Part shown: positions 3,187-53,843 of the stretch, in pieces
How the letters are laid out: the number at the start of each line of letters is the position of its first letter
How positions within the stretch are numbered: position 1 is the stretch's first letter
DNA from: Nitrospirota bacterium
GTDB taxonomy: Bacteria; Nitrospirota; Thermodesulfovibrionia; Thermodesulfovibrionales; UBA1546
Assembly: GCA_009773185.1 (NCBI GenBank)
Contig: WPIF01000014.1
Span: 1 to 64,000 of the forward strand
Reading direction: 5' to 3'
Length of the DNA: 64,000 bases
The notes under the pieces: generated by a model
Told to the model about the DNA's origin: nothing
What the model saw: only the letters and a program-made list of their open reading frames with translations
The model's database searches: none
Made by a program: the position numbers and the translations under genes

Positions 3187-4386
3187 TTATTTTTTAAAGA
3201 ATTTAGCGACTGAATCGAGTATCTTTTCTGAGGCATCATCCTTTGACATAAGAGCTAACGGTGTTTCCCTTTCCTTCTCTATTATCGTTATCCTGTTTGT
3301 ATCTACATCAAAACCCGAACCTGCTTCGGTAACATCATTAAAGACAATGATATCCGCACCTTTTCTCTTGCGTTTGGCCCTGGCCCTGTCAAGCCTCTTG
3401 CCTGTCTCTGCTGCAAATCCGACCAACAGAGGCCGTTTCTTTAATTTGCCTATCTCTGCAAGGATATCGGGAGTATTTTTGAATTTTATGCTGAGTTTTT
3501 CAGACTTGCCTATTTTTATATTTTCTTTTTTCTCAGGCGAAAAATCTGCAGGCGCTGCAGCCATTATGACAATATCGGTTTTCGAAAGATTTTTAAAAAC
3601 TGCTTCTCTCATTTCCGCGGCAGTTTCTACTTTGACAAATGCCTTTAACCCTTTTGGAGCCTGAAGCGCAGACGGCCCGCTAATCAATATTACTTCTGCT
3701 CCCCTTCTGATACATTCTCCGGCAACAGCATACCCCATCTTGCCAGATGAACGGTTGGAAATGAACCTCACGGGATCAAGATATTCGCGTGTCGGCCCTC
3801 CGGTCACTATAACTTTTTTTTTTGAAAGGTCCTTTTTGCTTAAAGCGGATTTTACCGCTTCTGTTATCTCATTCACCTCAGCCATTCTTCCAACGCCTTC
3901 TTCACCGCACGCAAGAGTTCCCTTATCCGGGCCAACCTGAAGGATGCCGTGAGCTGTCAGACGTTTAAGGTTTCCCTGTACCATAGGATTCTCATACATC
4001 CTCCAGTTCATTGAAGGCGCGATAACTACCTTTCCCCTGAATGAAAGTATGCATGTGCTTAAAAGATCATCAGCTATTCCATTTGCGAATTTACCGATTA
4101 TGTTTGCAGTGGCAGGGGCAATGAGCATAAGGTCAGCGTCACGGGAGAGTTCTATGTGGGACATCGGGTCTTCAAAGAGGCCGGAATAGACTTTGCTGCC
4201 GGATGCTATCTGAAGCGACAGCGGGGTTATAAAATTTTTAGAGGCATCGGTCATTATTACAATAACTGATGCCCCGTCATCTTTCAGTCTTCTTATTAAA
4301 TCAACCGCCTTGTAAGCAGCTACTCCTCCGGTTATGCCAAGGAGTATCTTTTTATTCTTCAGCACCTTCTTCCTGTTTATCGCCAA
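3187..4386 (-). CDS. coaBC: Bifunctional phosphopantothenoylcysteine decarboxylase / phosphopantothenate-cysteine ligase
   Basis: The N-terminal flavoprotein half (residues ~13-185) shows GITGGVAAYKA, the catalytic His in MSHIEL, APATANIIGKFANGIADDLL, PSMNWRMYENP and the catalytic Cys in LACGEEGVGRM. The C-terminal ligase half has GGPTREYLDPVRFISNRSSG, AAAPADF and VGFAAETG. Together they perform two consecutive steps of coenzyme A synthesis. The ATG at 4386 overlaps the end of rpoZ by 35 bp and has no clear ribosome site. A GTG at 4365 preceded by AGGAAG is an equally good start and removes only seven residues. It is last in the yicC-remA-gmk-rpoZ-coaBC operon. Confidence 0.95.
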   Translation of the reverse strand: MAINRKKVLKNKKILLGITGGVAAYKAVDLIRRLKDDGASVIVIMTDASKNFITPLSLQIASGSKVYSGLFEDPMSHIELSRDADLMLIAPATANIIGKFANGIADDLLSTCILSFRGKVVIAPSMNWRMYENPMVQGNLKRLTAHGILQVGPDKGTLACGEEGVGRMAEVNEITEAVKSALSKKDLSKKKVIVTGGPTREYLDPVRFISNRSSGKMGYAVAGECIRRGAEVILISGPSALQAPKGLKAFVKVETAAEMREAVFKNLSKTDIVIMAAAPADFSPEKKENIKIGKSEKLSIKFKNTPDILAEIGKLKKRPLLVGFAAETGKRLDRARAKRKRKGADIIVFNDVTEAGSGFDVDTNRITIIEKERETPLALMSKDDASEKILDSVAKFFKK

Positions 4387-4750
4387 AAAGCTCTTTCAGC
4401 GCCTTCTTGTCCATGGTCTCTTTCTCGTGCAGATAGACCTTCAGGTCCTTCTCAAGCTCTGTGAGTTCCTCCGGCGTAGCTTCCTTTTTCTTTTCTTCAA
4501 GCATCTTCCTGTAATCAAACTTCTTTGCCTCTTCTTTTGCCTTTCTGGCTTCTTCCCCTACAAGAAATTCAAGCTTGTCCTGGATAGCCTCTTCTATAGC
4601 AATAGTAGTTACTTTTTTTGACTTTGTCTGAATCTTCGGTTTCGCACCGTAAGACAGCTCCTTTGCCCTCTGAGCAGAGATCATTACAAGCCTGTATCTT
4701 CCATCGATCTTCGTCTCATCAATCTCTACCGGAAGTGAAATAATGTCCAT
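4352..4750 (-). CDS. rpoZ: DNA-directed RNA polymerase omega subunit
   Basis: 132 residues. The conserved omega core is near residues 15-65 (DGRYRLVMISAQRAKELS, then VTTIAIEEA and a Lys/Glu-rich stretch). Omega binds the beta' subunit and helps assemble RNA polymerase. The protein is longer than E. coli omega because of a charged C-terminal tail (residues ~70-132) rich in Glu and Lys, probably helical. Position between gmk and coaBC is the classic order, which supports the call despite low sequence conservation. Confidence 0.88.
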   Translation of the reverse strand: MDIISLPVEIDETKIDGRYRLVMISAQRAKELSYGAKPKIQTKSKKVTTIAIEEAIQDKLEFLVGEEARKAKEEAKKFDYRKMLEEKKKEATPEELTELEKDLKVYLHEKETMDKKALKELFGDKQEEGAEE

Positions 4751-40344: not shown

Positions 40345-40511
40345 AAATCTACAGGATGAAATATTGCAAGGTTCCCGATAATCCTCTTTCTAAGTTCCCA
40401 TATTTATAGCAATATGCTAATATTCACACCATATTAAAAAAAGAAGGATTGAGTCTTCTTTTATAGCGAGATGCGGATGACCATTTATGCCTTTATAGCC
40501 AGGGAGAACTT

Positions 40512-41423
40512 ATGTTCCTGTTTTTGAACTGGTTCTGCATTGTTTGTACGTGTTGGCTGCAAGTCTTCCTTGTCTTCCTCTTCCCAGCAAAATTTCATAA
40601 AAGATGTGGACGAAGGAAACCCATAGAAGACAATAAATTTTATCATCGCCAACCCAAGCCTGTATGGGTAAGACAGGAAGTAATGCGGCTCAAGGCGCTT
40701 ATGCCTGAGGCAGGGTGTAGAACAATTGCCAATACATTCAATCGCAAGTTTGCAGAGAGCAAACAGATGACTGTAAGTAAGACCTTTGTGAATGATGTTA
40801 TCAGAAATAACAAATATGAGATTCAGGTATTGAGAAAAGAGATAAAAAATAAAAAGCCAAAAGATGTGCCGAAGAATCTTGTCTGGGGAATGGATATAAC
40901 AGGCAAAGGAGATTCTCTTGGGAATATCCATAACATACTTGGGATAGTTGAACACGATAGCAGGCTGAGTCTTGGCCTGACATCTTTGAAAGACAAAGCC
41001 TCTATTACAATATTGCGATATTTGCTTGATGCTGTTGAGAGCTATGGCACCCCAAAATTTGTAAGGACAGATAATGAGCCTGTTTTTACCTCATGGCTTT
41101 TCAGATTCAGTCTATGGTTTATCGGTATTCGTCATCAGCTTATTGACAAAAGCTGCCCGTGGCAGAATGGAAAAATTGAACGGTTATTCGGGACATTGAA
41201 AGAGAAGATAGACCAATGGCAGGTAACCAATCAGGAACAACTCAATGAAGCGCTCGTTCAGTTCCGTTTCTGGTATAACCATGTCCGGCCACATCAGAAT
41301 CTTGAGGGCAGAACACCGGGCGAGGCATGGAGGAGAATTGATGTCTTTACAAAGGGACATAAGCAGGAATATTGGTTTGAGGCGTGGGATGGATTGCTGG
41401 CAGGGTTTTATTTAAAACTTTAA
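40512..41423 (+). mobile_element. IS481-type transposase (DDE integrase fold)
   Basis: 303 residues. The integrase core has the catalytic triad: Asp in VWGMDITGKG, Asp in VRTDNEPVF and Glu in WQNGKIERLFGTLKEK. The end region FWYNHVRPHQNLEGRTPGEAW is typical of the family. The gene appears full length with no frameshift. No clear terminal inverted repeats or target duplication were found, so element borders are undefined. The non-coding 41424-41689 has no gene. It lies beside the RHS locus. Confidence 0.85.
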
Positions 41424-41689
41424 GTTGTCTTTCAGGACAGGAGTGAAATTATAAAGGAAGAAGGATGTCCGCAGACCCCTGCGTTCAATGTGAGGCTGAG
41501 ACTGAAAATTGTCAGTTTGTGTTAGCCATGTAGAGAAAAGAGGCGGTTTAAGAAAAAATTTTATCATCAAGTTAATAACTTGATGAGTTTTCAAAACAAA
41601 AATCAACCGAAAATCCCTTGCGGACAGTCGGACAGGACACATAGCCGTACAATGTGGCTGTTCTCATTTAATTAGAACCCGTCACCTTT

Positions 41690-42064
41690 TTACTTTTTGT
41701 GGTAGCGTTTGTATCCAAGATAGAAGGCACATAGTAAAAAAAACAATGTGGATAGAACTATGCGAATATCCCATCCCTGCAAAACTAAACCAACAAAACC
41801 AGCAACAACTAAGATTAATGATAGAACAGTCGCCGACAAGTCGATACCTGAGGAGACCCTTTCAGCTAAAGCTAAACTTTCTACTGTATTTATCATCCCT
41901 CCTAAACGGTAGCCACCAATAAATCCAATTGTAAACCCTATGAGAAAGCCAGTTGCCAATCCATAGAAATCAGATGAATACAAAGCCCCGAAAAAAGAGC
42001 CTGTGCCACCACCTAAAATTCCAAAAACGCTTGCAAGTCTTAATTGAAGTGGAACTCTTTTCAT
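41690..42064 (-). CDS. Small multipass membrane protein, candidate immunity to the RHS tail
   Basis: 124 residues from ATG 42064; the longer frame runs back through the RHS gene and is rejected. There are three or four predicted membrane helices (FGILGGGTGSFFGALYSSDF; GLATGFLIGFTIGFIGGYRL; LSLILVVAGFVGLVLQGWD; IVLSTLFFLLCAFYLGYKR). The first two are Gly-rich like the RHS C-terminus. It starts 7 bp after the RHS stop, so the pair is co-translated. Polymorphic toxins place immunity genes in just this position. No homologous family is recognised, so the role is inference. Confidence 0.65.
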   Translation of the reverse strand: MKRVPLQLRLASVFGILGGGTGSFFGALYSSDFYGLATGFLIGFTIGFIGGYRLGGMINTVESLALAERVSSGIDLSATVLSLILVVAGFVGLVLQGWDIRIVLSTLFFLLCAFYLGYKRYHKK

Positions 42065-42071
42065 GATTCTC

Positions 42072-45000
42072 CTATTTACACGGGCTCCTATGCTGCCTGC
42101 GCCATTGCTCCAACATTCCTTCTTCACCACAATTAAGAGAACCGGCACAAGGCTGATCAAATAATTGATGGCCTGCCGTGCCACCGAGAAAGCCTCCTGC
42201 CATTCCACCAACAATGCCACCAATTGCGCCACCTACAAATCCTCCGACAATGCCACCACCTAAACTTCCCAATGGTCCACCACCAAGCCCCAAAGAAGCA
42301 CCATAGGCAAAACCTACATCCATTCCGATACTAGTTCCAGCCGCGGCTCCAGCAACAGCGCCTCCATACCAGCCTACGGTGGCACCTATCGTCTGCCCTG
42401 GTCCTCCTCCATAAGCACCGGGGCCAAGTGGTGCTGGCGAGATTGGTGCTAACCCCAGCGGGTCCGTCCAGTTCACTGGATCTGATGAGATATAATTAAA
42501 TAGATTTACGTCTCCACCCTTGAAATCAATTGGATCCTTCGCCGTCCATTTCCCTATTGCAGGATCGTAGTCCCTTGCACCGAATCTTACAAGACCAGTG
42601 TCTCTGTCATGTAAGCCACCTGCAAATCCGAATGGAACGGCAAAACTTGGATTAGTATCGGAAATTATATTCCCAAATGAATCATAGGTTATTTGCTTGA
42701 CAATATTTCCAGAGCTATCAGTTACCGCCCTCAATGAGCCTACCTGATCATAAAGCAGGTAGTATGTGATTCCATTCTGAACCATAGACACCGGCATTCT
42801 TCCATTTGCGTAATTGAAGCGCATTAGCAGATTACTGTTGCCGTCATAGACAGCAAGTAGTTGAGTTAGCCCTTGCCATAGATATTTTTCTACCACCGTT
42901 CCGCTAATCCGCTTTGCAATCCTTCTGCCCATCGGGTCATGGTCATAGATAATAGTCGTTCCATCAGGTTTGGTAATGTTCAGCAATTCACCTCTTGAAG
43001 AATACTGATATGTCATCGTGCCGGAAGCTGTCGTCTTGCCTGTCAAGAAACCATCTACATTGAACTGGTATGTATTCGCACCTGCCGTTAAAATATGATC
43101 TTCATTGGAATAGCTGTAGTTTACCGAGTTACCGATAAGGCGGTTGCCGTTTGCATCATACGAGTAGCTCTCTGTTGTCGTTCCGTTCTGCTTTACTTCA
43201 ATCAATCTTCCAAGGGTAAGGGTATCATATTGGTAGTCCCATGTAATAACTTCACCTTTAATATTTTCTACTCTCTGAGTGATTCTTCCTGCCTGGTCAC
43301 GTGTCATGCTGAGGATATACACATCGGTTGCGCTTATCTTGTTGGAATACGCATCAACCTCTCCATATCCGCTAAATGTTCTTGAAAGACTATACGTGTT
43401 ATCGGATACTTTTTCGGGCAGCCCGTTTTGAGAATTCCTTGCTATCGTGAACGCGCCTGCGCTGGTCAGCAAGCCGTCATTGTCATAGCCGAGACTATAA
43501 GAAGTCCCTGCATAGGAAATAGATAAAAGCCTGAAATCATTGTTGTAGGCATAGCTAATAGTTTGATTAAGAAGTCCCGTTCTGCTATCCGTTTTCAATA
43601 ACAAACCATCGTATGTAAACGTTATTTTCTCTGTGCCTCGCACTGCGCCTGACATGAGACTTGAGCATCCATATTCAAAAGTTGTCATTCCCTCCGGAGT
43701 TGTTGTGCTTGTGAGCAATCCTTTGGTATATGTATTCGTTATCAGTTTCCCGGACGGGAATTGAATCGTTTTCAATTTTCTCTCTTTGTCATAAGAATAT
43801 AGATAACTGCCGGACAATGGCGTCATCCATGTCTTGCGCTGATCGTTGGCGGTGTAGCCGAATGAGTTGGCTATGCTTTTGGGATTCGTAAGAACCGTCA
43901 TATTGCCGTTGTTGTCGTAATTGTAGGATACTATCGTTCCATCCGGACGATATTCGGATTTCAATCTGCCCATTACGTCATACATGTAATCAAAGGTCTT
44001 GTTGTCCGGCGTAATCATATAATCAATATTTCCATTTGGGTCATAAGCAATTGAAAGCGTCCTTGTGCCTGTGGTCGTGCCTGTGAGCCTCCCTCGTGTG
44101 TCATAGCTGAATGTTACCGGCGATAAACCTGCAACTGAAATCTCCTTTGTCAGAAGATTCGTTGTGTCATATTTGCTCGTTACAATCCTGCCGAGAGGAG
44201 AGGTGTTTATGATCGCTCCTGTAAGAACATTATTTTTTGTTGTCCAGTTCTTGCTGTTTATAGCAGTCGTCTCCGTAATCAAATCCGGTTTCTTATCCGT
44301 ATTTGTGTCCTGATAGGTTTTGGTGAAAGCGGTTGTCAGCAATAATCCGGCAGGAGATGTTTTTGAGAGTTCTTTTGTGTATTTGAATTTATACTCTGAG
44401 TCAAGGCCATATTTCATTGTCTGTTTCATTCCGCAGAACTGTGATGTCTCTGTCAAGCCGTCTGATGAAGCAGTCGTTTGTGTAATCGCACCTGTCGGGT
44501 CTGTTTTTAATGAAGTATATGCGCCTGTTGAATCAGTTTTGTCTTTGTATGCAGTAAGATTTCCCTCTGCCGTGAGAATGTTCGTAAGGATATACCCTGA
44601 ATTGTCCATTGTCTTTGAATAGTTCCAGCTTCCGCCTTCAGGGTCTAATATATCCGTAATCCTGCCGTTGGCATCAAATTGATGCTTAAAATGATTGTTC
44701 TTAGTGTCATATTCATCTGTCATAAGGCTCTCTGATGTATAGGCAAATGCATATGCTGAGTTATCAGGGTAAGAAACCTTTTTCAGATTGTTGCTGCCAT
44801 CAATGGTCAAGCTCGTGATAATGCCGTCAGGGGAGGTGATGGATGTCGGTATGCCACTTCCGTCTCTCTGAATCGTTGTCTGATTTCCGAATCTGTCTGT
44901 TATGGAGATGAGTTGTTTATTCTGATAGCCAAAGGTGAGAAGAGTCTTACCCGTTTCAAGATCAATAGTAGATTTATGCAGACCGATGCTATCCATGATG

Positions 45001-48000
45001 TATCCAAGACCGTTTTCATCGGTGAAGACAAAGTCATCGGCAACAATATGCCCTATAAATATTTCTGGTGGAGAAATTTTCCTTACCCGTTGATTTAGCA
45101 TATCTGCTATATAGATATTTCCTGCACTATCAACTGCTACTCCTCTCGAATCACTAAATTTTGCCTGGGTAGCCGGACCGCCATCGCCGCTAAAGCCGCC
45201 TCCCCACCAACCACTATCACTACCAGCTACTGTTGTAATAATGCCGCTGGCATCCACTTTTCTTATTCGGTGATTCCAAGCATCTGCAATATAAATATTG
45301 CCTGAACTATCTATGACTACTCCAGTTGGATAATTAAGCATTGCATTTGTTGCAAGGCCACCGTCTCCACTAAAACACGTTTGCCAGTTCTGCCACGAGC
45401 AGCATCGCTGCCCAGCGCCAGCAATTGTTATGATAATGCCGTTTGTGTTCACTTTTCGTATTCTACTAGTAATTGTATCTGCAATATAAATATTGCCTGA
45501 ACTATCTACGACTACTCCCTGTGGAGAATAAAGACTTGCCTGAGTTGCAGGGCCTCCATCCCCAAGGTTCAACCAATTACTACCACCACCTGCTACCGTT
45601 GTGATAATTCCATTAGTATCCACTTTTCTTATGCGACCATTATAGCTATCCGCTATATAAATATTCCCTGCGTTATCCACTGCTATACCAGTTGGAGAAT
45701 TAAGCATTGCCTGAGTTGCAGGGCCTCCGTCTCCAAGGTTCAACCAATTACTACCACCACCTGCTACCGTTGTGATAATTCCATTAGTATCCACTTTTCT
45801 TATGCGACCATTATAGCTATCCGCTATGTAGATATTTCCTGCGCTGTCTACTGCCACTCCATGTGGAGAATAAAGCCTTGCATTTGTTGCAGGGCCTCCA
45901 TCTCCGCTAAAGCCGGACTGTCCATTGCCTGCAACGGTTGTGATAATTTTAGTAAAATTGTTTTTGCTTTTTGTGCCATCCCCCTTATAAAGAGCGTTAG
46001 AGTCAGACAAATTCAGATAATGATGCGAAGAGAGCGTCCAACCACTGCCAAAAGCAGCAATAGAAGTAATCCCTTCTCCTCTCTGAACAATCAATGAACT
46101 ATGCTTCCATGAGATGACTTCCTGTCTTGCAAGAATTCCCGTAACATAGCTGCCTGCCTGAGCAAATGATTGAGCAAAATTGCCTCCATCGTAATAAACT
46201 GCCTGATACACAAACCCTATGCTTATGTTTGCAGTTGTTGAACCAACAGGTTTTCCAAGATAATCTAATCCATCCCATACAAATTCAGCTTTTTGATTCG
46301 GCTGGGCTGGAAGTGTTGTCTCAAATGTTCTGCCTGCAACTTCCATCTTCACAATAATGCTCTTGAGGCTCGGAGGAACAGAGCTTCCGCTTGCAGGAAT
46401 GGTTATCGAGGATTTAAAGCCCTTAACGCGGTTGCTTGCGTAATGCAAGGCCATATCTGTTCCGGGGATTGGTATGTCTTCATGGAAGATGCGGTTTCTG
46501 CTCTCGCAATATGAGTTTATTTTGTCACAATCATCATCATCTTTCTGCCCATCGGATGAGGGTTCGCCTCCGGGATTCGGCGGAGTTGCACCAGCAGGTG
46601 GACCGTAAGGCCAGTTGCAGTCCCACGGAGTGAAATGATTAATCTTGACACGCCAATATGTTGAATTGGGTTTATATTTAGAGGGGTCAGTCAGCCCTTG
46701 TATATTAAAATCGTCAGGCAGGCTGTCTCCTGTGCTGTCAATTGCATCAACAATCCCATCTCCATTTGTGTCGAGAAGCTTGACTACAACTCCATTGTCT
46801 GAAGGAACCCATACTGCCCTGTCTCTGTCGTAATAGCCAACAGGGACTTTTTCTCCAACTTTAAAGCCTAAAAAATTATCCACATAAACAGTAACCGGCT
46901 TTTCGAATCTCACATTCTTTGCGCCGTCAACTGAGAGTTCGGAGGCATAGGTGAATGCGGAATTCGGCGGCAGTTTTGCAGGCATGGATTCAGGCGTTTC
47001 AAACTCTGTGGCCCTTGTTGCGATGGATGAAAGAATTGTCTCTGTGCCGTCTGCGGATTTTGAATATGCCTTGTTGTCTCCGCTAAAAACCATTGTCAAG
47101 AAACGGCTGCCATATGAATCGGAGATTGTTGAGCTCTTGTGGGTTATGATTGTTGAGGGATTGCCGTCAAAGTTCACTGTTGTAACAGCTATGTCTTCGG
47201 GGATCATGGAGATCGTCTCGGCTGTTGCTATATCATTCCATGGGGTATTTACCTGACGGTGGGTTGTTATAAAACTCGTTTTCTCATAAACAATTGTGAT
47301 AGTTCCGCCTCCATCTACAGGGATAGAGAACCTTCCTTCGCTGTTTGTGGTTACTGTTCCATATTCAGGATGGCTGTGGATTGAGACTGTTACGCCTGAT
47401 AACGGATTCTGCGACTTGTCTTTGACGATACCCGTAATCATGGAAAATCTTTTGGAGTCATAGGCTTTTATCGTTGCATTTTGAGGGACCAGTTCTTCAT
47501 ATTGTTTTCCAAATGAGCCTTCGGGCAAGGGTTCTACGGTAATTTTCTTGTTTGCAGTGAAAATAATAGGGCTTGATATGCCTCCTCCCGGCAAAGGGTT
47601 AATGACTTTAACCTGATAACTTTCATCTGTCTTTATTGCATCAGACGGGATTGTTGCAATAATTTGTGTCTTGCTTATGTAGTTTGCCGGATAAGGCAGG
47701 TTGTTGAAGCTCATAAGTGATGTCTTTACAAAGTTATCGCCTGTCAAGGTAAGTATGAAATCAGGGCTTTCTGCTGTGATTGACGCCGGGTTTATGGATG
47801 TGAGTGAAGGGATAGGGTTAAGGACTGTGAATGTTGCTGTGTTTGATGGCCCGCCACCGGGTGACGGGTTTGACGCTTTTATGTCAAGGTATCTGCCATA
47901 TTCCAAGTCTTCAGATGTGAGTTCAAGCTGGATTTTTGTCTGGCTTATGAGTGTAAAGGGTCTTGAGGTTCCATTTATATACACTGTGGTGTCATTGAAA

Positions 48001-49343
48001 AGTCCTGTGCCAAAGACTGTGAGGGTTAATCCCTGTGTGCCTGCCATTGTTTCCAATGGGTCAAGGGATGAGATTTGCGGGATCGGGTTCATTATCTGGA
48101 GGGTTGCCGAATTTGATATGCCGCCTTCAGGCGCTGGATTAGTAACTGTTATCTGGTATGTGCCTGTTTTTTGTAGTAATGTCTCAGGGATTTCTACTTT
48201 GAGGTGGTGATTGTCTATGAAGGAAGCGTGCAGCGTATAGCTGGTAGCGGGTAGTAAAAAACCAGATGAGGATTTTATAAATCCTGAACCTTCGATGATA
48301 AGCTCTGCTGTTTTGCCTCCACGCAAGAGCGTATCAGGCGTAATCGAGGTTATTGCCGGAATAGGATTGGGAAGCTGTATCAAAGTGAGGCTGTCTGTTT
48401 TGTCGTCAACTATTCCTGCTATGTTTGTGAAGTTGTTGACTGCAACTCCTTTGGGTAGTTTGTTTAAGGGATAGGTTTTAATTGTTGTGTTTGTATTCAG
48501 GTCTATAAGTTGTAGTGTTCTATCTTCGTCACAGATTACAAGGGCGCGGTTGTCGAGCTGGTTTATTGCTACTGAGATTGGATGCTTGCCTGTCTGAATT
48601 GTGGAGGTCTGCCAATTAAAAAGATTTATGATTGTTATTGAGTTATCTTTTTCATTAACAACTGCTGCAAGGTGCGTTTCATGATTAACATCAATTGCCT
48701 GCGGTTTTTGTCCGGTTGGAACTGTTCCTGTTACCTGATTGGTGTTCAGGTCTATGACTGAGACATTGTAGTCTTTTTCATTTACAACTAATGCAAGGTT
48801 CAGGACAGGGTCTATCGCTATATCCTTTGGCTCCTGTCCTACTGGAATAGTTCTTGTTAAGCTGTTATTTGTCAAATCAATAACTGAGACTGTGTTGTCT
48901 TTGTGATTGGCTGCATAGGCACGGTGGGTTGCCTGATTTATCGTTATTCCTTCCGGTTCTTTGCCAATCGGGATTGTCTTGATTACTGAAAAGGTATTGA
49001 GATCTATAAATAAGACTGTATCATCTTTGCTGTTTGTTACAAGGGCAATATTCAGTCCTTTATCAATTGAAACTCCTCTTGGAGCTTTGCCGACAGGAAT
49101 GGTTGATATAACTTTTTGAGTATTGAGATTTACTATTGAAACTGAATCGGCCTTCTCATTTGCAATCACTGCAATGTCTGTAATCGGATTAATTGCTATG
49201 CCTCTGGGGTTTGATTCGAGGGGGATGCCTGAGGTGTCGGTTGTGGAATGGACAGAGTCTTTAAGAGAAAATACTATAAGGCTAAGGACTGATAAAATTA
49301 AGACAAAGAAAACGCATCTAAAAGAGTAGCTCTTTCTCATCAT
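42072..49343 (-). CDS. Giant RHS/YD-repeat protein with YVTN, IPT/TIG and NHL domains and a glycine-zipper tail
   Basis: 2423 residues. In order: signal peptide (1-32); YVTN-type beta-propeller (around 40-330, units like NPRGIAINPITDIAVIANEK); IPT/TIG immunoglobulin-like repeats (around 335-610); a carboxypeptidase-regulatory-like domain (TGIVKDKSQNPLSGVTVSI); NHL blades (around 1130-1430, GPATNARLYSPHGVAVDSAG); RHS/YD repeats; and the RHS core end GARDYDPAIGKWTAKDPIDF ... DPVNWTDPLGL. The 125 residues after DPLGL (2299-2423, 42072-42449) are a glycine-zipper (GGGIVGGFVGGAIGGIVGG) then CAGSLNCGEEGM. RHS cages hold a C-terminal toxin; a pore-forming tail fits. The small membrane gene follows. 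Confidence 0.92.
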   Translation of the reverse strand: MMRKSYSFRCVFFVLILSVLSLIVFSLKDSVHSTTDTSGIPLESNPRGIAINPITDIAVIANEKADSVSIVNLNTQKVISTIPVGKAPRGVSIDKGLNIALVTNSKDDTVLFIDLNTFSVIKTIPIGKEPEGITINQATHRAYAANHKDNTVSVIDLTNNSLTRTIPVGQEPKDIAIDPVLNLALVVNEKDYNVSVIDLNTNQVTGTVPTGQKPQAIDVNHETHLAAVVNEKDNSITIINLFNWQTSTIQTGKHPISVAINQLDNRALVICDEDRTLQLIDLNTNTTIKTYPLNKLPKGVAVNNFTNIAGIVDDKTDSLTLIQLPNPIPAITSITPDTLLRGGKTAELIIEGSGFIKSSSGFLLPATSYTLHASFIDNHHLKVEIPETLLQKTGTYQITVTNPAPEGGISNSATLQIMNPIPQISSLDPLETMAGTQGLTLTVFGTGLFNDTTVYINGTSRPFTLISQTKIQLELTSEDLEYGRYLDIKASNPSPGGGPSNTATFTVLNPIPSLTSINPASITAESPDFILTLTGDNFVKTSLMSFNNLPYPANYISKTQIIATIPSDAIKTDESYQVKVINPLPGGGISSPIIFTANKKITVEPLPEGSFGKQYEELVPQNATIKAYDSKRFSMITGIVKDKSQNPLSGVTVSIHSHPEYGTVTTNSEGRFSIPVDGGGTITIVYEKTSFITTHRQVNTPWNDIATAETISMIPEDIAVTTVNFDGNPSTIITHKSSTISDSYGSRFLTMVFSGDNKAYSKSADGTETILSSIATRATEFETPESMPAKLPPNSAFTYASELSVDGAKNVRFEKPVTVYVDNFLGFKVGEKVPVGYYDRDRAVWVPSDNGVVVKLLDTNGDGIVDAIDSTGDSLPDDFNIQGLTDPSKYKPNSTYWRVKINHFTPWDCNWPYGPPAGATPPNPGGEPSSDGQKDDDDCDKINSYCESRNRIFHEDIPIPGTDMALHYASNRVKGFKSSITIPASGSSVPPSLKSIIVKMEVAGRTFETTLPAQPNQKAEFVWDGLDYLGKPVGSTTANISIGFVYQAVYYDGGNFAQSFAQAGSYVTGILARQEVISWKHSSLIVQRGEGITSIAAFGSGWTLSSHHYLNLSDSNALYKGDGTKSKNNFTKIITTVAGNGQSGFSGDGGPATNARLYSPHGVAVDSAGNIYIADSYNGRIRKVDTNGIITTVAGGGSNWLNLGDGGPATQAMLNSPTGIAVDNAGNIYIADSYNGRIRKVDTNGIITTVAGGGSNWLNLGDGGPATQASLYSPQGVVVDSSGNIYIADTITSRIRKVNTNGIIITIAGAGQRCCSWQNWQTCFSGDGGLATNAMLNYPTGVVIDSSGNIYIADAWNHRIRKVDASGIITTVAGSDSGWWGGGFSGDGGPATQAKFSDSRGVAVDSAGNIYIADMLNQRVRKISPPEIFIGHIVADDFVFTDENGLGYIMDSIGLHKSTIDLETGKTLLTFGYQNKQLISITDRFGNQTTIQRDGSGIPTSITSPDGIITSLTIDGSNNLKKVSYPDNSAYAFAYTSESLMTDEYDTKNNHFKHQFDANGRITDILDPEGGSWNYSKTMDNSGYILTNILTAEGNLTAYKDKTDSTGAYTSLKTDPTGAITQTTASSDGLTETSQFCGMKQTMKYGLDSEYKFKYTKELSKTSPAGLLLTTAFTKTYQDTNTDKKPDLITETTAINSKNWTTKNNVLTGAIINTSPLGRIVTSKYDTTNLLTKEISVAGLSPVTFSYDTRGRLTGTTTGTRTLSIAYDPNGNIDYMITPDNKTFDYMYDVMGRLKSEYRPDGTIVSYNYDNNGNMTVLTNPKSIANSFGYTANDQRKTWMTPLSGSYLYSYDKERKLKTIQFPSGKLITNTYTKGLLTSTTTPEGMTTFEYGCSSLMSGAVRGTEKITFTYDGLLLKTDSRTGLLNQTISYAYNNDFRLLSISYAGTSYSLGYDNDGLLTSAGAFTIARNSQNGLPEKVSDNTYSLSRTFSGYGEVDAYSNKISATDVYILSMTRDQAGRITQRVENIKGEVITWDYQYDTLTLGRLIEVKQNGTTTESYSYDANGNRLIGNSVNYSYSNEDHILTAGANTYQFNVDGFLTGKTTASGTMTYQYSSRGELLNITKPDGTTIIYDHDPMGRRIAKRISGTVVEKYLWQGLTQLLAVYDGNSNLLMRFNYANGRMPVSMVQNGITYYLLYDQVGSLRAVTDSSGNIVKQITYDSFGNIISDTNPSFAVPFGFAGGLHDRDTGLVRFGARDYDPAIGKWTAKDPIDFKGGDVNLFNYISSDPVNWTDPLGLAPISPAPLGPGAYGGGPGQTIGATVGWYGGAVAGAAAGTSIGMDVGFAYGASLGLGGGPLGSLGGGIVGGFVGGAIGGIVGGMAGGFLGGTAGHQLFDQPCAGSLNCGEEGMLEQWRRQHRSPCK
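45541..45841 (-). repeat. Near-identical 171-bp tandem NHL unit in the RHS gene
   Basis: About 130 bp at 45541-45670 recur at 45712-45841 with only a few changes (offset 171 bp, 57 codons). Other blades of the same propeller are far more diverged, so this duplication looks recent. Confidence 0.8.
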
Positions 49344-49404
49344 TTTCCCCTCTGATGATTTGGCTGGAACTGTTTAGAATAATAAAGAAGCATAAAACTC
49401 TTGT

Positions 49405-49478
49405 CAAGGAGAAAATTCAGACCTGTGAATTTACTTCATGAAATTTACTTCGTTACGCCAATTTAGAAATGTCCTGTT
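49405..49478. repeat. Element remnant at the right edge of the RHS locus
   Basis: AAAATTCAGACCTG (49412-49425) resembles the GGTCAGGTCT family, and GCCAATTTAGAAATGTCCTG (49457-49476) resembles 17994-18013. It marks the boundary upstream of the RHS gene. Confidence 0.45.
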
Positions 49479-49507
49479 CTTTATCTCTATCTCCAGTAAT
49501 TATGGAA

Positions 49508-53201: not shown

Positions 53202-53246
53202 TTTAAGTATTGACATTAGTATAACTACTTGGTATCTTTTAAGTAT
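53202..53246 (+). promoter_or_regulatory. Sigma70 promoter of mazEF-like genes with TTTAAGTAT repeats
   Basis: TTGACA (53210-53215), 17-nt spacer, TATCTT (53233-53238). Transcription would begin at or within a few bases of the ATG at 53245, giving a leaderless message. TTTAAGTAT occurs at 53202-53210 and again at 53238-53246, a likely site for antitoxin autoregulation. Confidence 0.6.
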
Positions 53247-53493
53247 GAAAACAGCAATATCTATCCCGGATGAACTCTTCAAGGAAGTTGAGAAGTTTGC
53301 CCAAAAACATAATTACTCCAGAAGCGAGGTGTTTGTCGTTGCAGTCAGAGATTTCCTCAGAAAACTGGAATCAAGAAAACTCCTGAATCTCCTTAATGAC
53401 GCATACTCGGCCACCGAGCCTGTCGAAGAAAAAGCTCTCAGGGAAAAAAGCAAGAAACATTATGCCAGAACAGTTTTAAAGGAAAAATATTGA
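53245..53493 (+). CDS. Ribbon-helix-helix antitoxin of a MazEF-type module
   Basis: 82 residues. The N-terminal MKTAISIPDELFKEVEKFAQ and SRSEVFVVAVRDFL are a ribbon-helix-helix DNA-binding domain. The C-terminal half is charged and probably disordered until it wraps the toxin. Such antitoxins neutralise the adjacent toxin and repress the operon. The stop overlaps the toxin start by 4 bp. Confidence 0.92.
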   Translation: MKTAISIPDELFKEVEKFAQKHNYSRSEVFVVAVRDFLRKLESRKLLNLLNDAYSATEPVEEKALREKSKKHYARTVLKEKY

Positions 53494-53843
53494 CAATCAG
53501 GCAGGGTGATATTTACTGGGTCAACCTTGGCGTCCCGAAAGGCTCAGAGCCAGGCTACAGACATCCGCATGTTGTTATACAAAACAATATTTTTAATGCC
53601 AGCAAAATAAATACAGTAGTTGTTTGCGCCTTAACTTCAAACCCAAAAAGGGCAGCCGCCCCTGGAAATGTTCTGTTGAAAAAAGGAGAAGGAAATCTGC
53701 CAAAAGACAGTGTTGTTAATATATCGCAGATTATAACGGTGAATAAGCCAGACCTTATTGAAAAGATAGGGTCATTATCACCTGCAAAACTCCAGGAGGT
53801 AATAGAAGGTATTAAGCTCCTGGTAGAGCCAAGAGAGTTGTAA
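53490..53843 (+). CDS. MazF/PemK-type mRNA interferase toxin
   Basis: 117 residues. It begins with TTG at 53490 (TTGA overlap), preceded by AAAGGA. RQGDIYWVNLGVPKGSEPGY, RHPHVVIQNN, VVCALTSNPKRAAAPGNVLL and DSVVNISQIITVNK are the family motifs with the conserved Arg and Thr/Ser active-site positions. It cleaves RNA at specific short sequences. Nothing suggests inactivation. It is immediately followed by the parDE-like cassette. Confidence 0.95.
   Translation: MTIRQGDIYWVNLGVPKGSEPGYRHPHVVIQNNIFNASKINTVVVCALTSNPKRAAAPGNVLLKKGEGNLPKDSVVNISQIITVNKPDLIEKIGSLSPAKLQEVIEGIKLLVEPREL

What the first reader, a model, noticed from the sequence alone, without database searches (positions are those of the whole stretch)
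42072..49343. RHS protein with YVTN, IPT and NHL domains and a glycine-zipper tail plus a coupled membrane protein
The variable 125-residue region after DPLGL is a Gly-zipper helix set, as in membrane-inserting effectors, not an enzyme. A 124-residue multipass protein with similar Gly-rich helices starts 7 bp later. This suggests a pore-forming polymorphic toxin with membrane immunity. The very long N-terminal propeller and immunoglobulin-like array with a signal peptide imply export by the general pathway and surface display rather than a VgrG/T6SS cargo.
Basis: partly seen in the sequence, partly recalled or inferred. Interest (0 to 1): 0.7.

Follow-up and report, generated by a model that had tools for sequence, protein, structure and literature searches.

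The report
Bacterial teneurin-like toxin with glycine-zipper tail
This is a very large, exported bacterial protein built like the animal brain receptor teneurin; it probably carries a small membrane-damaging toxin at its end, with a matching membrane protein beside it as antidote, which makes it a new example of a toxin family described in 2026, here in a phylum not on that study's list.

Summary
A 2423-aa reading frame (42072-49343, minus) ends in a 125-aa glycine-zipper tail after DPLGL. A 124-aa multipass protein (41690-42064, minus) starts 7 nt later with a Shine-Dalgarno site.

Residues 629-2298 match the solved Bacillus TLP at about 1100 bits, in the order TTR, TIP, FN-plug, NHL, YD-shell, with the autoprotease residues at identical spacing. 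TLPs were defined in 2026 (PMC13018210) as polymorphic toxins with downstream immunity genes; the Bacillus tail permeabilises membranes. That paper's phylum list lacks Nitrospirota, where this one lies.

Orthologues 58-72% identical overall carry unrelated tails and unrelated next genes. The only tail relative found sits on a papain-fold RHS carrier, again followed by a small membrane protein. Of 50 RHS/TLP tails with an SD-preceded next gene within 60 nt, 46 of those genes have a membrane or signal segment (12 of 42 control ORFs). The genome lacks TssB (T6SS). Sister genomes show an empty site.

Most likely: a Sec-exported, surface-displayed TLP with a membrane-depolarising tail and a membrane immunity protein. 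Toxicity and immunity are inferred, not shown.

The parts
42072..49343 (-). Teneurin-like protein, 2423 aa, whole reading frame
   Evidence: best solved relative Bacillus Teneurin-Like Protein 9pt5/9ifo, E=0, 1114 bits
49245..49343 (-). Residues 1-33: hydrophobic N-terminus, likely Sec signal peptide (SPI type; no lipobox)
   Evidence: Kyte-Doolittle up to 2.57; inference from sequence, no signal-peptide predictor was available
48369..49211 (-). YVTN/lactonase-type beta-propeller, about residues 45-325
   Evidence: TIGR02276, Lactonase, YNCE
47544..48371 (-). Three Ig-like (CoaZ_rpt_PGGG) repeats, about residues 325-600
   Evidence: NF058597 three stretches
47205..47462 (-). Teneurin TTR-like domain, residues 628-713
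   Evidence: PF25020 E=1.4e-20
46497..47204 (-). TIP region, about residues 714-949, with Cys939 and Ser944 of the FN-plug loop near its end
   Evidence: continuous alignment to Bacillus TLP
45954..46496 (-). FN-plug region, about residues 950-1130
   Evidence: PF24329 sub-threshold; continuous alignment to Bacillus TLP
45069..46025 (-). NHL propeller, about residues 1107-1425
   Evidence: PF25021 E=2e-50, PF01436
42450..45026 (-). YD-shell and RHS core, about residues 1440-2298, with autoprotease residues R2257, D2270, D2294
   Evidence: PF25023, TIGR03696 to 2298; spacing 13 and 24 as in Bacillus TLP
42075..42449 (-). Variable C-terminal tail, 125 aa, two glycine-zipper helices, proposed membrane toxin
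   Evidence: one relative in 176 order genomes
41690..42064 (-). P0002, 124-aa multipass membrane protein, proposed immunity protein
   Evidence: 7 nt after the stop with SD; best match among the other downstream genes is the neighbour of the tail relative
40512..41423 (+). rve-type integrase/transposase, tail-to-tail with the pair and inside the inserted block
   Evidence: PF13683; relatives beside two other RHS/TLP tails
40375..49507 (.). Approximate inserted block relative to the empty site between the DUF502-like gene and yebC in sister genomes

Best explanation
The locus encodes a bacterial Teneurin-Like Protein, a polymorphic toxin of the RHS/YD family, plus its immunity protein. Step 1 (inferred): the protein is exported by Sec and displayed through its YVTN propeller and Ig-like repeats, not by a T6SS. 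Step 2 (by homology): FN-plug, NHL and YD-shell form a closed shell, and the aspartate protease at its end cuts after DPLGL, leaving the 125-aa tail free inside. Step 3 (inferred): on contact the tail is released and its two long glycine-zipper helices insert and oligomerise in the target's inner membrane, depolarising it. Step 4 (inferred): the 124-aa four-helix membrane protein, itself glycine-zipper-rich in its first two helices, blocks insertion or assembly of the tail in the producer's own membrane. Steps 1, 3 and 4 are not shown by experiment. Scaffold, tail and immunity gene lie in one inserted block.
For: Bacillus TLP match with identical protease spacing. Teneurin-specific Pfam domains in order. 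Orthologous scaffolds with different tails and different neighbours. Tail-neighbour co-inheritance in 18 of 39 homologous tail pairs. Downstream genes with a membrane/signal segment in 46 of 50 against 12 of 42 controls. Significant zipper periodicity. A relative of the tail on another carrier with a similar membrane neighbour. No TssB. Precedents: Bacillus TLP tail permeabilises E. coli when given a signal peptide; EsxX with polytopic ExiCD; CdzC/D with inner-membrane CdzI.
Against: No experiment. The tail has no sequence homology to any tested toxin. Its hydropathy is moderate (below 1.6 over 19 residues). Homology of P0002 to the neighbour of the tail relative is only suggestive (3-4% level against shuffles that keep local composition). 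P0002 has no known family. How TLPs cross the outer membrane and deliver tails is unknown.
Confidence: 0.68

Rival explanations
1. The glycine zipper is only a translocation device, as in the T6SS DNase Tde1, and the true toxin domain has been lost or is the last ~28 residues; the locus is then a decayed or non-toxic tail.
For: Tde1 uses a glycine zipper for entry (PMC10240207). The tail ends in a short hydrophilic piece with three Cys. Some RHS tails here are longer with glycine zippers before other sequence (L101, L118, L119).
Against: The related tail in G161 also ends shortly after its zipper, with no long domain. Tails of this length are normal for TLPs (about 15 kDa). An SD-bearing membrane gene is kept next to it.
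Confidence: 0.15
2. The tail and the small membrane protein are parts of a surface-adhesion or envelope-anchoring device with no toxin function; the Gly-rich helices anchor the large protein in the outer membrane.
For: Animal teneurins are adhesion receptors; N-terminal propeller and Ig-like repeats resemble adhesins; glycine-zipper segments occur in outer-membrane lipoproteins (general knowledge; weak Gly-zipper_Omp hit of P0002, E=0.17).
Against: The tail is the hypervariable part and is exchanged with its neighbour, as expected of a toxin and not of a conserved anchor; the protease site would release it.
Confidence: 0.12
3. P0002 is an unrelated small membrane gene and the true immunity lies elsewhere.
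For: No known family; similarity to the G161 neighbour only suggestive.
Against: 7-nt spacing and SD overlapping the stop; the only other genes in the insert are the integrase and the TLP.
Confidence: 0.12
4. It is a T6SS Rhs effector of the Tse5 kind (Rhs cocoon with a pore-forming tail).
For: Tse5 is an Rhs pore-forming toxin (PMC10684867) and matches the core weakly.
Against: No TssB in a genome rated 100% complete; no PAAR or VgrG domain in the scans; signal-peptide-like N-terminus; scaffold far closer to TLPs (1114 bits against 46 for Tse5).
Confidence: 0.02

Closest known systems
Bacterial Teneurin-Like Proteins, Bacillus inaquosorum TLP (PMC13018210; PDB 9pt5, 9ifo)
   Same: TTR, TIP, FN-plug, NHL, YD-shell order; protease residues at the same spacing; short variable tail; hydrophobic membrane-active tail in the Bacillus case; downstream immunity-type gene; Cys near the FN-plug cleavage serine
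   Different: Different N-terminal domains (YVTN propeller and CoaZ repeats); tail not homologous and built of glycine zippers; phylum not on the paper's list; likely SPI signal where the paper predicts SPII for Gram-negative TLPs
EsxX/TelE glycine-zipper toxins with ExiCD (PMC12744356)
   Same: Glycine-zipper C-terminal toxin; polytopic membrane immunity acting against the extracellular form
   Different: LXG carrier and T7SS; no sequence match shown here; function of the window tail not tested
CdzC/CdzD-CdzI of Caulobacter (PMC5380434)
   Same: Surface-associated glycine-zipper killer with small inner-membrane immunity protein; no T6SS
   Different: Two small type-I-secreted bacteriocins, no RHS shell
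Tse5, T6SS Rhs pore-forming toxin (PMC10684867)
   Same: RHS cocoon carrying a membrane-active tail
   Different: T6SS-delivered; far weaker scaffold match

Membership tests
Bacterial Teneurin-Like Protein (TLP) | FN-plug, NHL and YD-shell adjacent, in order, in one frame | tested here: met
   Pfam order (FN-plug below its cut-off) and alignment to Bacillus TLP over residues 629-1311 and 1133-2344
Bacterial Teneurin-Like Protein (TLP) | TIP domain between TTR and FN-plug (96% of TLPs) | tested here: met
   residues 714-949 align continuously with the Bacillus TIP region
Bacterial Teneurin-Like Protein (TLP) | Autoprotease Arg and two Asp at the PxxxxDPxG site | tested here: met
   R2257, D2270, D2294: spacing 13 and 24, identical to R2103, D2116, D2140
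Bacterial Teneurin-Like Protein (TLP) | Hypervariable short C-terminal domain and a downstream immunity-type gene | tested here: met
   orthologues with different tails and neighbours
Bacterial Teneurin-Like Protein (TLP) | Tail cleaved and enclosed in the shell | not testable with these tools
   needs protein
Glycine-zipper membrane toxin | Repeated GxxxG in membrane-length helices | tested here: met
   helices predicted with low confidence
Glycine-zipper membrane toxin | Membrane depolarisation or permeabilisation | not testable with these tools
   no experiment possible
Glycine-zipper membrane toxin | Cognate membrane-protein immunity | tested here: inconclusive
   adjacent multipass gene, similar neighbour in the one tail relative
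T6SS Rhs effector | T6SS in the genome; PAAR/VgrG-type N-terminus | tested here: not met
   TssB absent in own genome while found in the E. coli control; no such domain in scans. TssB was the only T6SS gene searched for

The most novel reading that the evidence does not exclude
In this Nitrospirota order, teneurin-like and other RHS proteins form a T6SS-independent, Sec-exported arsenal aimed mainly at the envelope (membrane or peptidoglycan), traded as tail-plus-membrane-immunity cassettes between unrelated carriers, with the tail tied by a C-terminal cysteine to the conserved FN-plug cysteine and some cassettes associated with a dedicated rve integrase.
Probability: 0.2. Interest if true: 0.65.

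Novelty: new member of a known kind. Interest (0 to 1): 0.42.

Why it matters
It places bacterial teneurin-like toxins in Nitrospirota, a phylum outside the six listed by the defining paper, and gives a simple toxin/immunity pair (125 aa and 124 aa) for testing whether a glycine-zipper tail can be delivered from a teneurin shell without any known injection machine. How TLP tails reach their targets is stated as unsolved in that paper. The comparative set (108 tails with their neighbours) suggests that RHS tails in this lineage act mostly at the envelope.

Tried and rejected
Pfam, NCBIfam, PHROGs and PDB sequence searches with the tail and/or P0002: no significant family. Plasmid collection with P0002: no match. 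Two-row alignment of tail relatives over 396 phylum genomes: no further relative. Foldseek with the P0002 model: nothing significant. Homology of the tail to the Bacillus TLP tail: rejected, since beyond DPLGL the alignment is weak and the tail alone does not find it. Inverted repeats bounding the insertion: none convincing. A first tail-calling script with a regular expression found only 34 tails and was replaced by an HMM that found 108. A failed script and two wrong-frame queries were corrected. The integrase copies in G008:C57 and G005:C100 were checked and show no RHS core match on their short contigs, so the integrase association is not universal. The metagenome collection was not searched (not available).

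Full report
WHAT IS THERE. The 2423-aa frame at 42072-49343 (minus) and the 124-aa frame at 41690-42064 (minus) exist as described. The RHS stop and the next ATG are 7 nt apart, and the sequence TAGGAGAATCATG joins them. The 125 residues after DPLGL hold 27 GxxxG pairs (11.6 in shuffles, 0 of 5000 as high), Gly spacings peak at 4 and 8, and tail residues 16-97 carry only Asp44 and His94 as charged or ionisable residues. A two-row AlphaFold run gives two long helices (17-52, 59-97) at low confidence, mean pLDDT 58. P0002 is predicted as four helices, mean pLDDT 68.

WHAT IT IS. Pfam finds the teneurin-specific models TTR_TEN1-4, TEN_NHL, TEN_YD-shell and a sub-threshold FN-plug, in teneurin order. 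The best solved relative is the Bacillus Teneurin-Like Protein (9pt5/9ifo; E=0, 1114 bits), far above animal teneurins (342 bits) and T6SS Rhs proteins. The match is continuous through the TTR-TIP-FN-plug part and loses real similarity at DPLGL. The autoprotease residues R2257, D2270, D2294 have the spacing of R2103, D2116, D2140 in the Bacillus protein. The Cys before the FN-plug cleavage serine (Cys719/Ser724 there, Cys939/Ser944 here) has a counterpart in the TLP sequences read. The family was described in PMC13018210: cleaved tail inside a shell, toxic tails of many kinds, downstream immunity genes, delivery unknown. That paper lists six phyla and does not contain the word stem Nitrospir.

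COMPARATIVE TEST. Three long orthologues are 72, 58 and 58% identical overall. The G004 orthologue shares the N-terminus almost letter for letter but ends in a 77-aa Cys-rich tail followed by a 156-aa protein with four hydrophobic segments. Other TLPs end in an L,D-transpeptidase-like tail with a signal-bearing neighbour (G008 and L158; YkuD E=1.4e-4, just under its cut-off), in a Gly-rich tail (G143 C53; a related tail is on an own-genome RHS, L004/L063), or in hydrophobic tails with three-segment neighbours (L170, L172). Across 108 RHS/TLP tails, 50 have an SD-preceded gene starting within 60 nt of the stop; 46 of these have at least one hydrophobic membrane/signal segment and 27 at least two, against 12 of 42 SD-preceded ORFs of 60-300 aa in control loci. 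Of 39 homologous tail pairs, 18 have homologous neighbours (E<1e-3), several with cores under 50% identical. So tail and neighbour behave as exchanged toxin-immunity cassettes, as in known polymorphic toxins.

THE WINDOW'S OWN PAIR. In 176 order genomes one relative of the tail was found (G161, E=3e-8, 47% over 29-108). It is the C-terminus of a different carrier with a papain-family protease and a transglutaminase-like domain. The next gene there is a 135-aa membrane protein with SD. It is the best match to P0002 among the other downstream genes (global score 77.5 against 52.5 for the next), z 4.3-4.6 against full shuffles, but only at the 3-4% level against shuffles that keep local composition. 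I take this as suggestive of homology, not proof. P0002 was not found in 100 relatives, in a 230-genome class search, or in plasmids.

HOW IT LIKELY WORKS. By homology: shell, autoprotease, cassette organisation. Inferred: Sec export (hydrophobic N-terminus, no lipobox, no TssB in the genome), membrane insertion of the released zipper helices, and blocking by P0002 in the inner membrane. Precedents: the Bacillus TLP tail permeabilises E. coli only with a signal peptide, EsxX with ExiCD, CdzC/D with CdzI. The Tde1 precedent (zipper as translocator) is the main rival for the tail.

GENOMIC SETTING. In sister genomes G001 (YebC 100% identical) and G002 the DUF502-like gene and yebC are neighbours; the window has about 9.1 kb (40375-49507) instead of about 25 nt. 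The block also holds an rve integrase. Among 175 relatives only four genomes have this integrase at E<=1e-40; one copy lies just downstream of the G004 TLP and its neighbour, and one full copy plus a broken one lie beside an own-genome RHS tail on C30, while copies in G008 and G005 show no RHS core nearby.

LIMITS. Hydropathy thresholds are crude; downstream genes were chosen by a heuristic that favours SD and ATG, and 58 of 108 tails had no such gene within 60 nt; contig ends truncate some loci; the control ORFs come from few loci; there is no experiment. Novelty is modest because the family, and a membrane-active tail in it, are already published.

Noticed in passing
window 40375-49507; L183, L184: The TLP, its neighbour and an integrase form an approximately 9.1-kb insertion: sister genomes have the DUF502-like gene and yebC adjacent.
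   Followed up: yes
window 40512-41423; L047:3407-4318; L198:2187-3098 and 4090-4472: A rare rve-type integrase (four genomes of 175) lies tail-to-tail just beyond RHS/TLP tail ends at three separate loci; two further copies (G008, G005) have no RHS core nearby.
   Followed up: partly
108 RHS/TLP tails, e.g. window residue 2422, L170, L172, L173, L163: Cysteine is enriched at the very end of RHS/TLP tails: 39 of 100 non-redundant tails have Cys in the last 8 residues, 24 expected from shuffles, 0 of 2000 as high. It recalls the tail-to-FN-plug disulfide of the Bacillus TLP.
   Followed up: partly
L049:2445-4328 and L063:7663-13500: The same Gly-rich tail (61% identical over the aligned part) is on a TLP in G143 and on a different RHS carrier in the window's own genome, with weakly similar neighbours (E=0.007).
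   Followed up: partly
L050:2995-3360, L158 tail, L067, L122, L060:1998-2420: L,D-transpeptidase-like tails recur on TLP and RHS carriers, and one RHS tail is DUF5675; these may be peptidoglycan-directed toxins.
   Followed up: no
L098:842-7348: RHS carrier with likely signal peptide, papain-family protease and transglutaminase-like domain, bearing the related glycine-zipper tail.
   Followed up: no
window 53245-53843 (+): Small gene pair that looks like a MazEF-type toxin-antitoxin (ribbon-helix-helix-like protein and a MazF-like protein), judged from the translations only.
   Followed up: no
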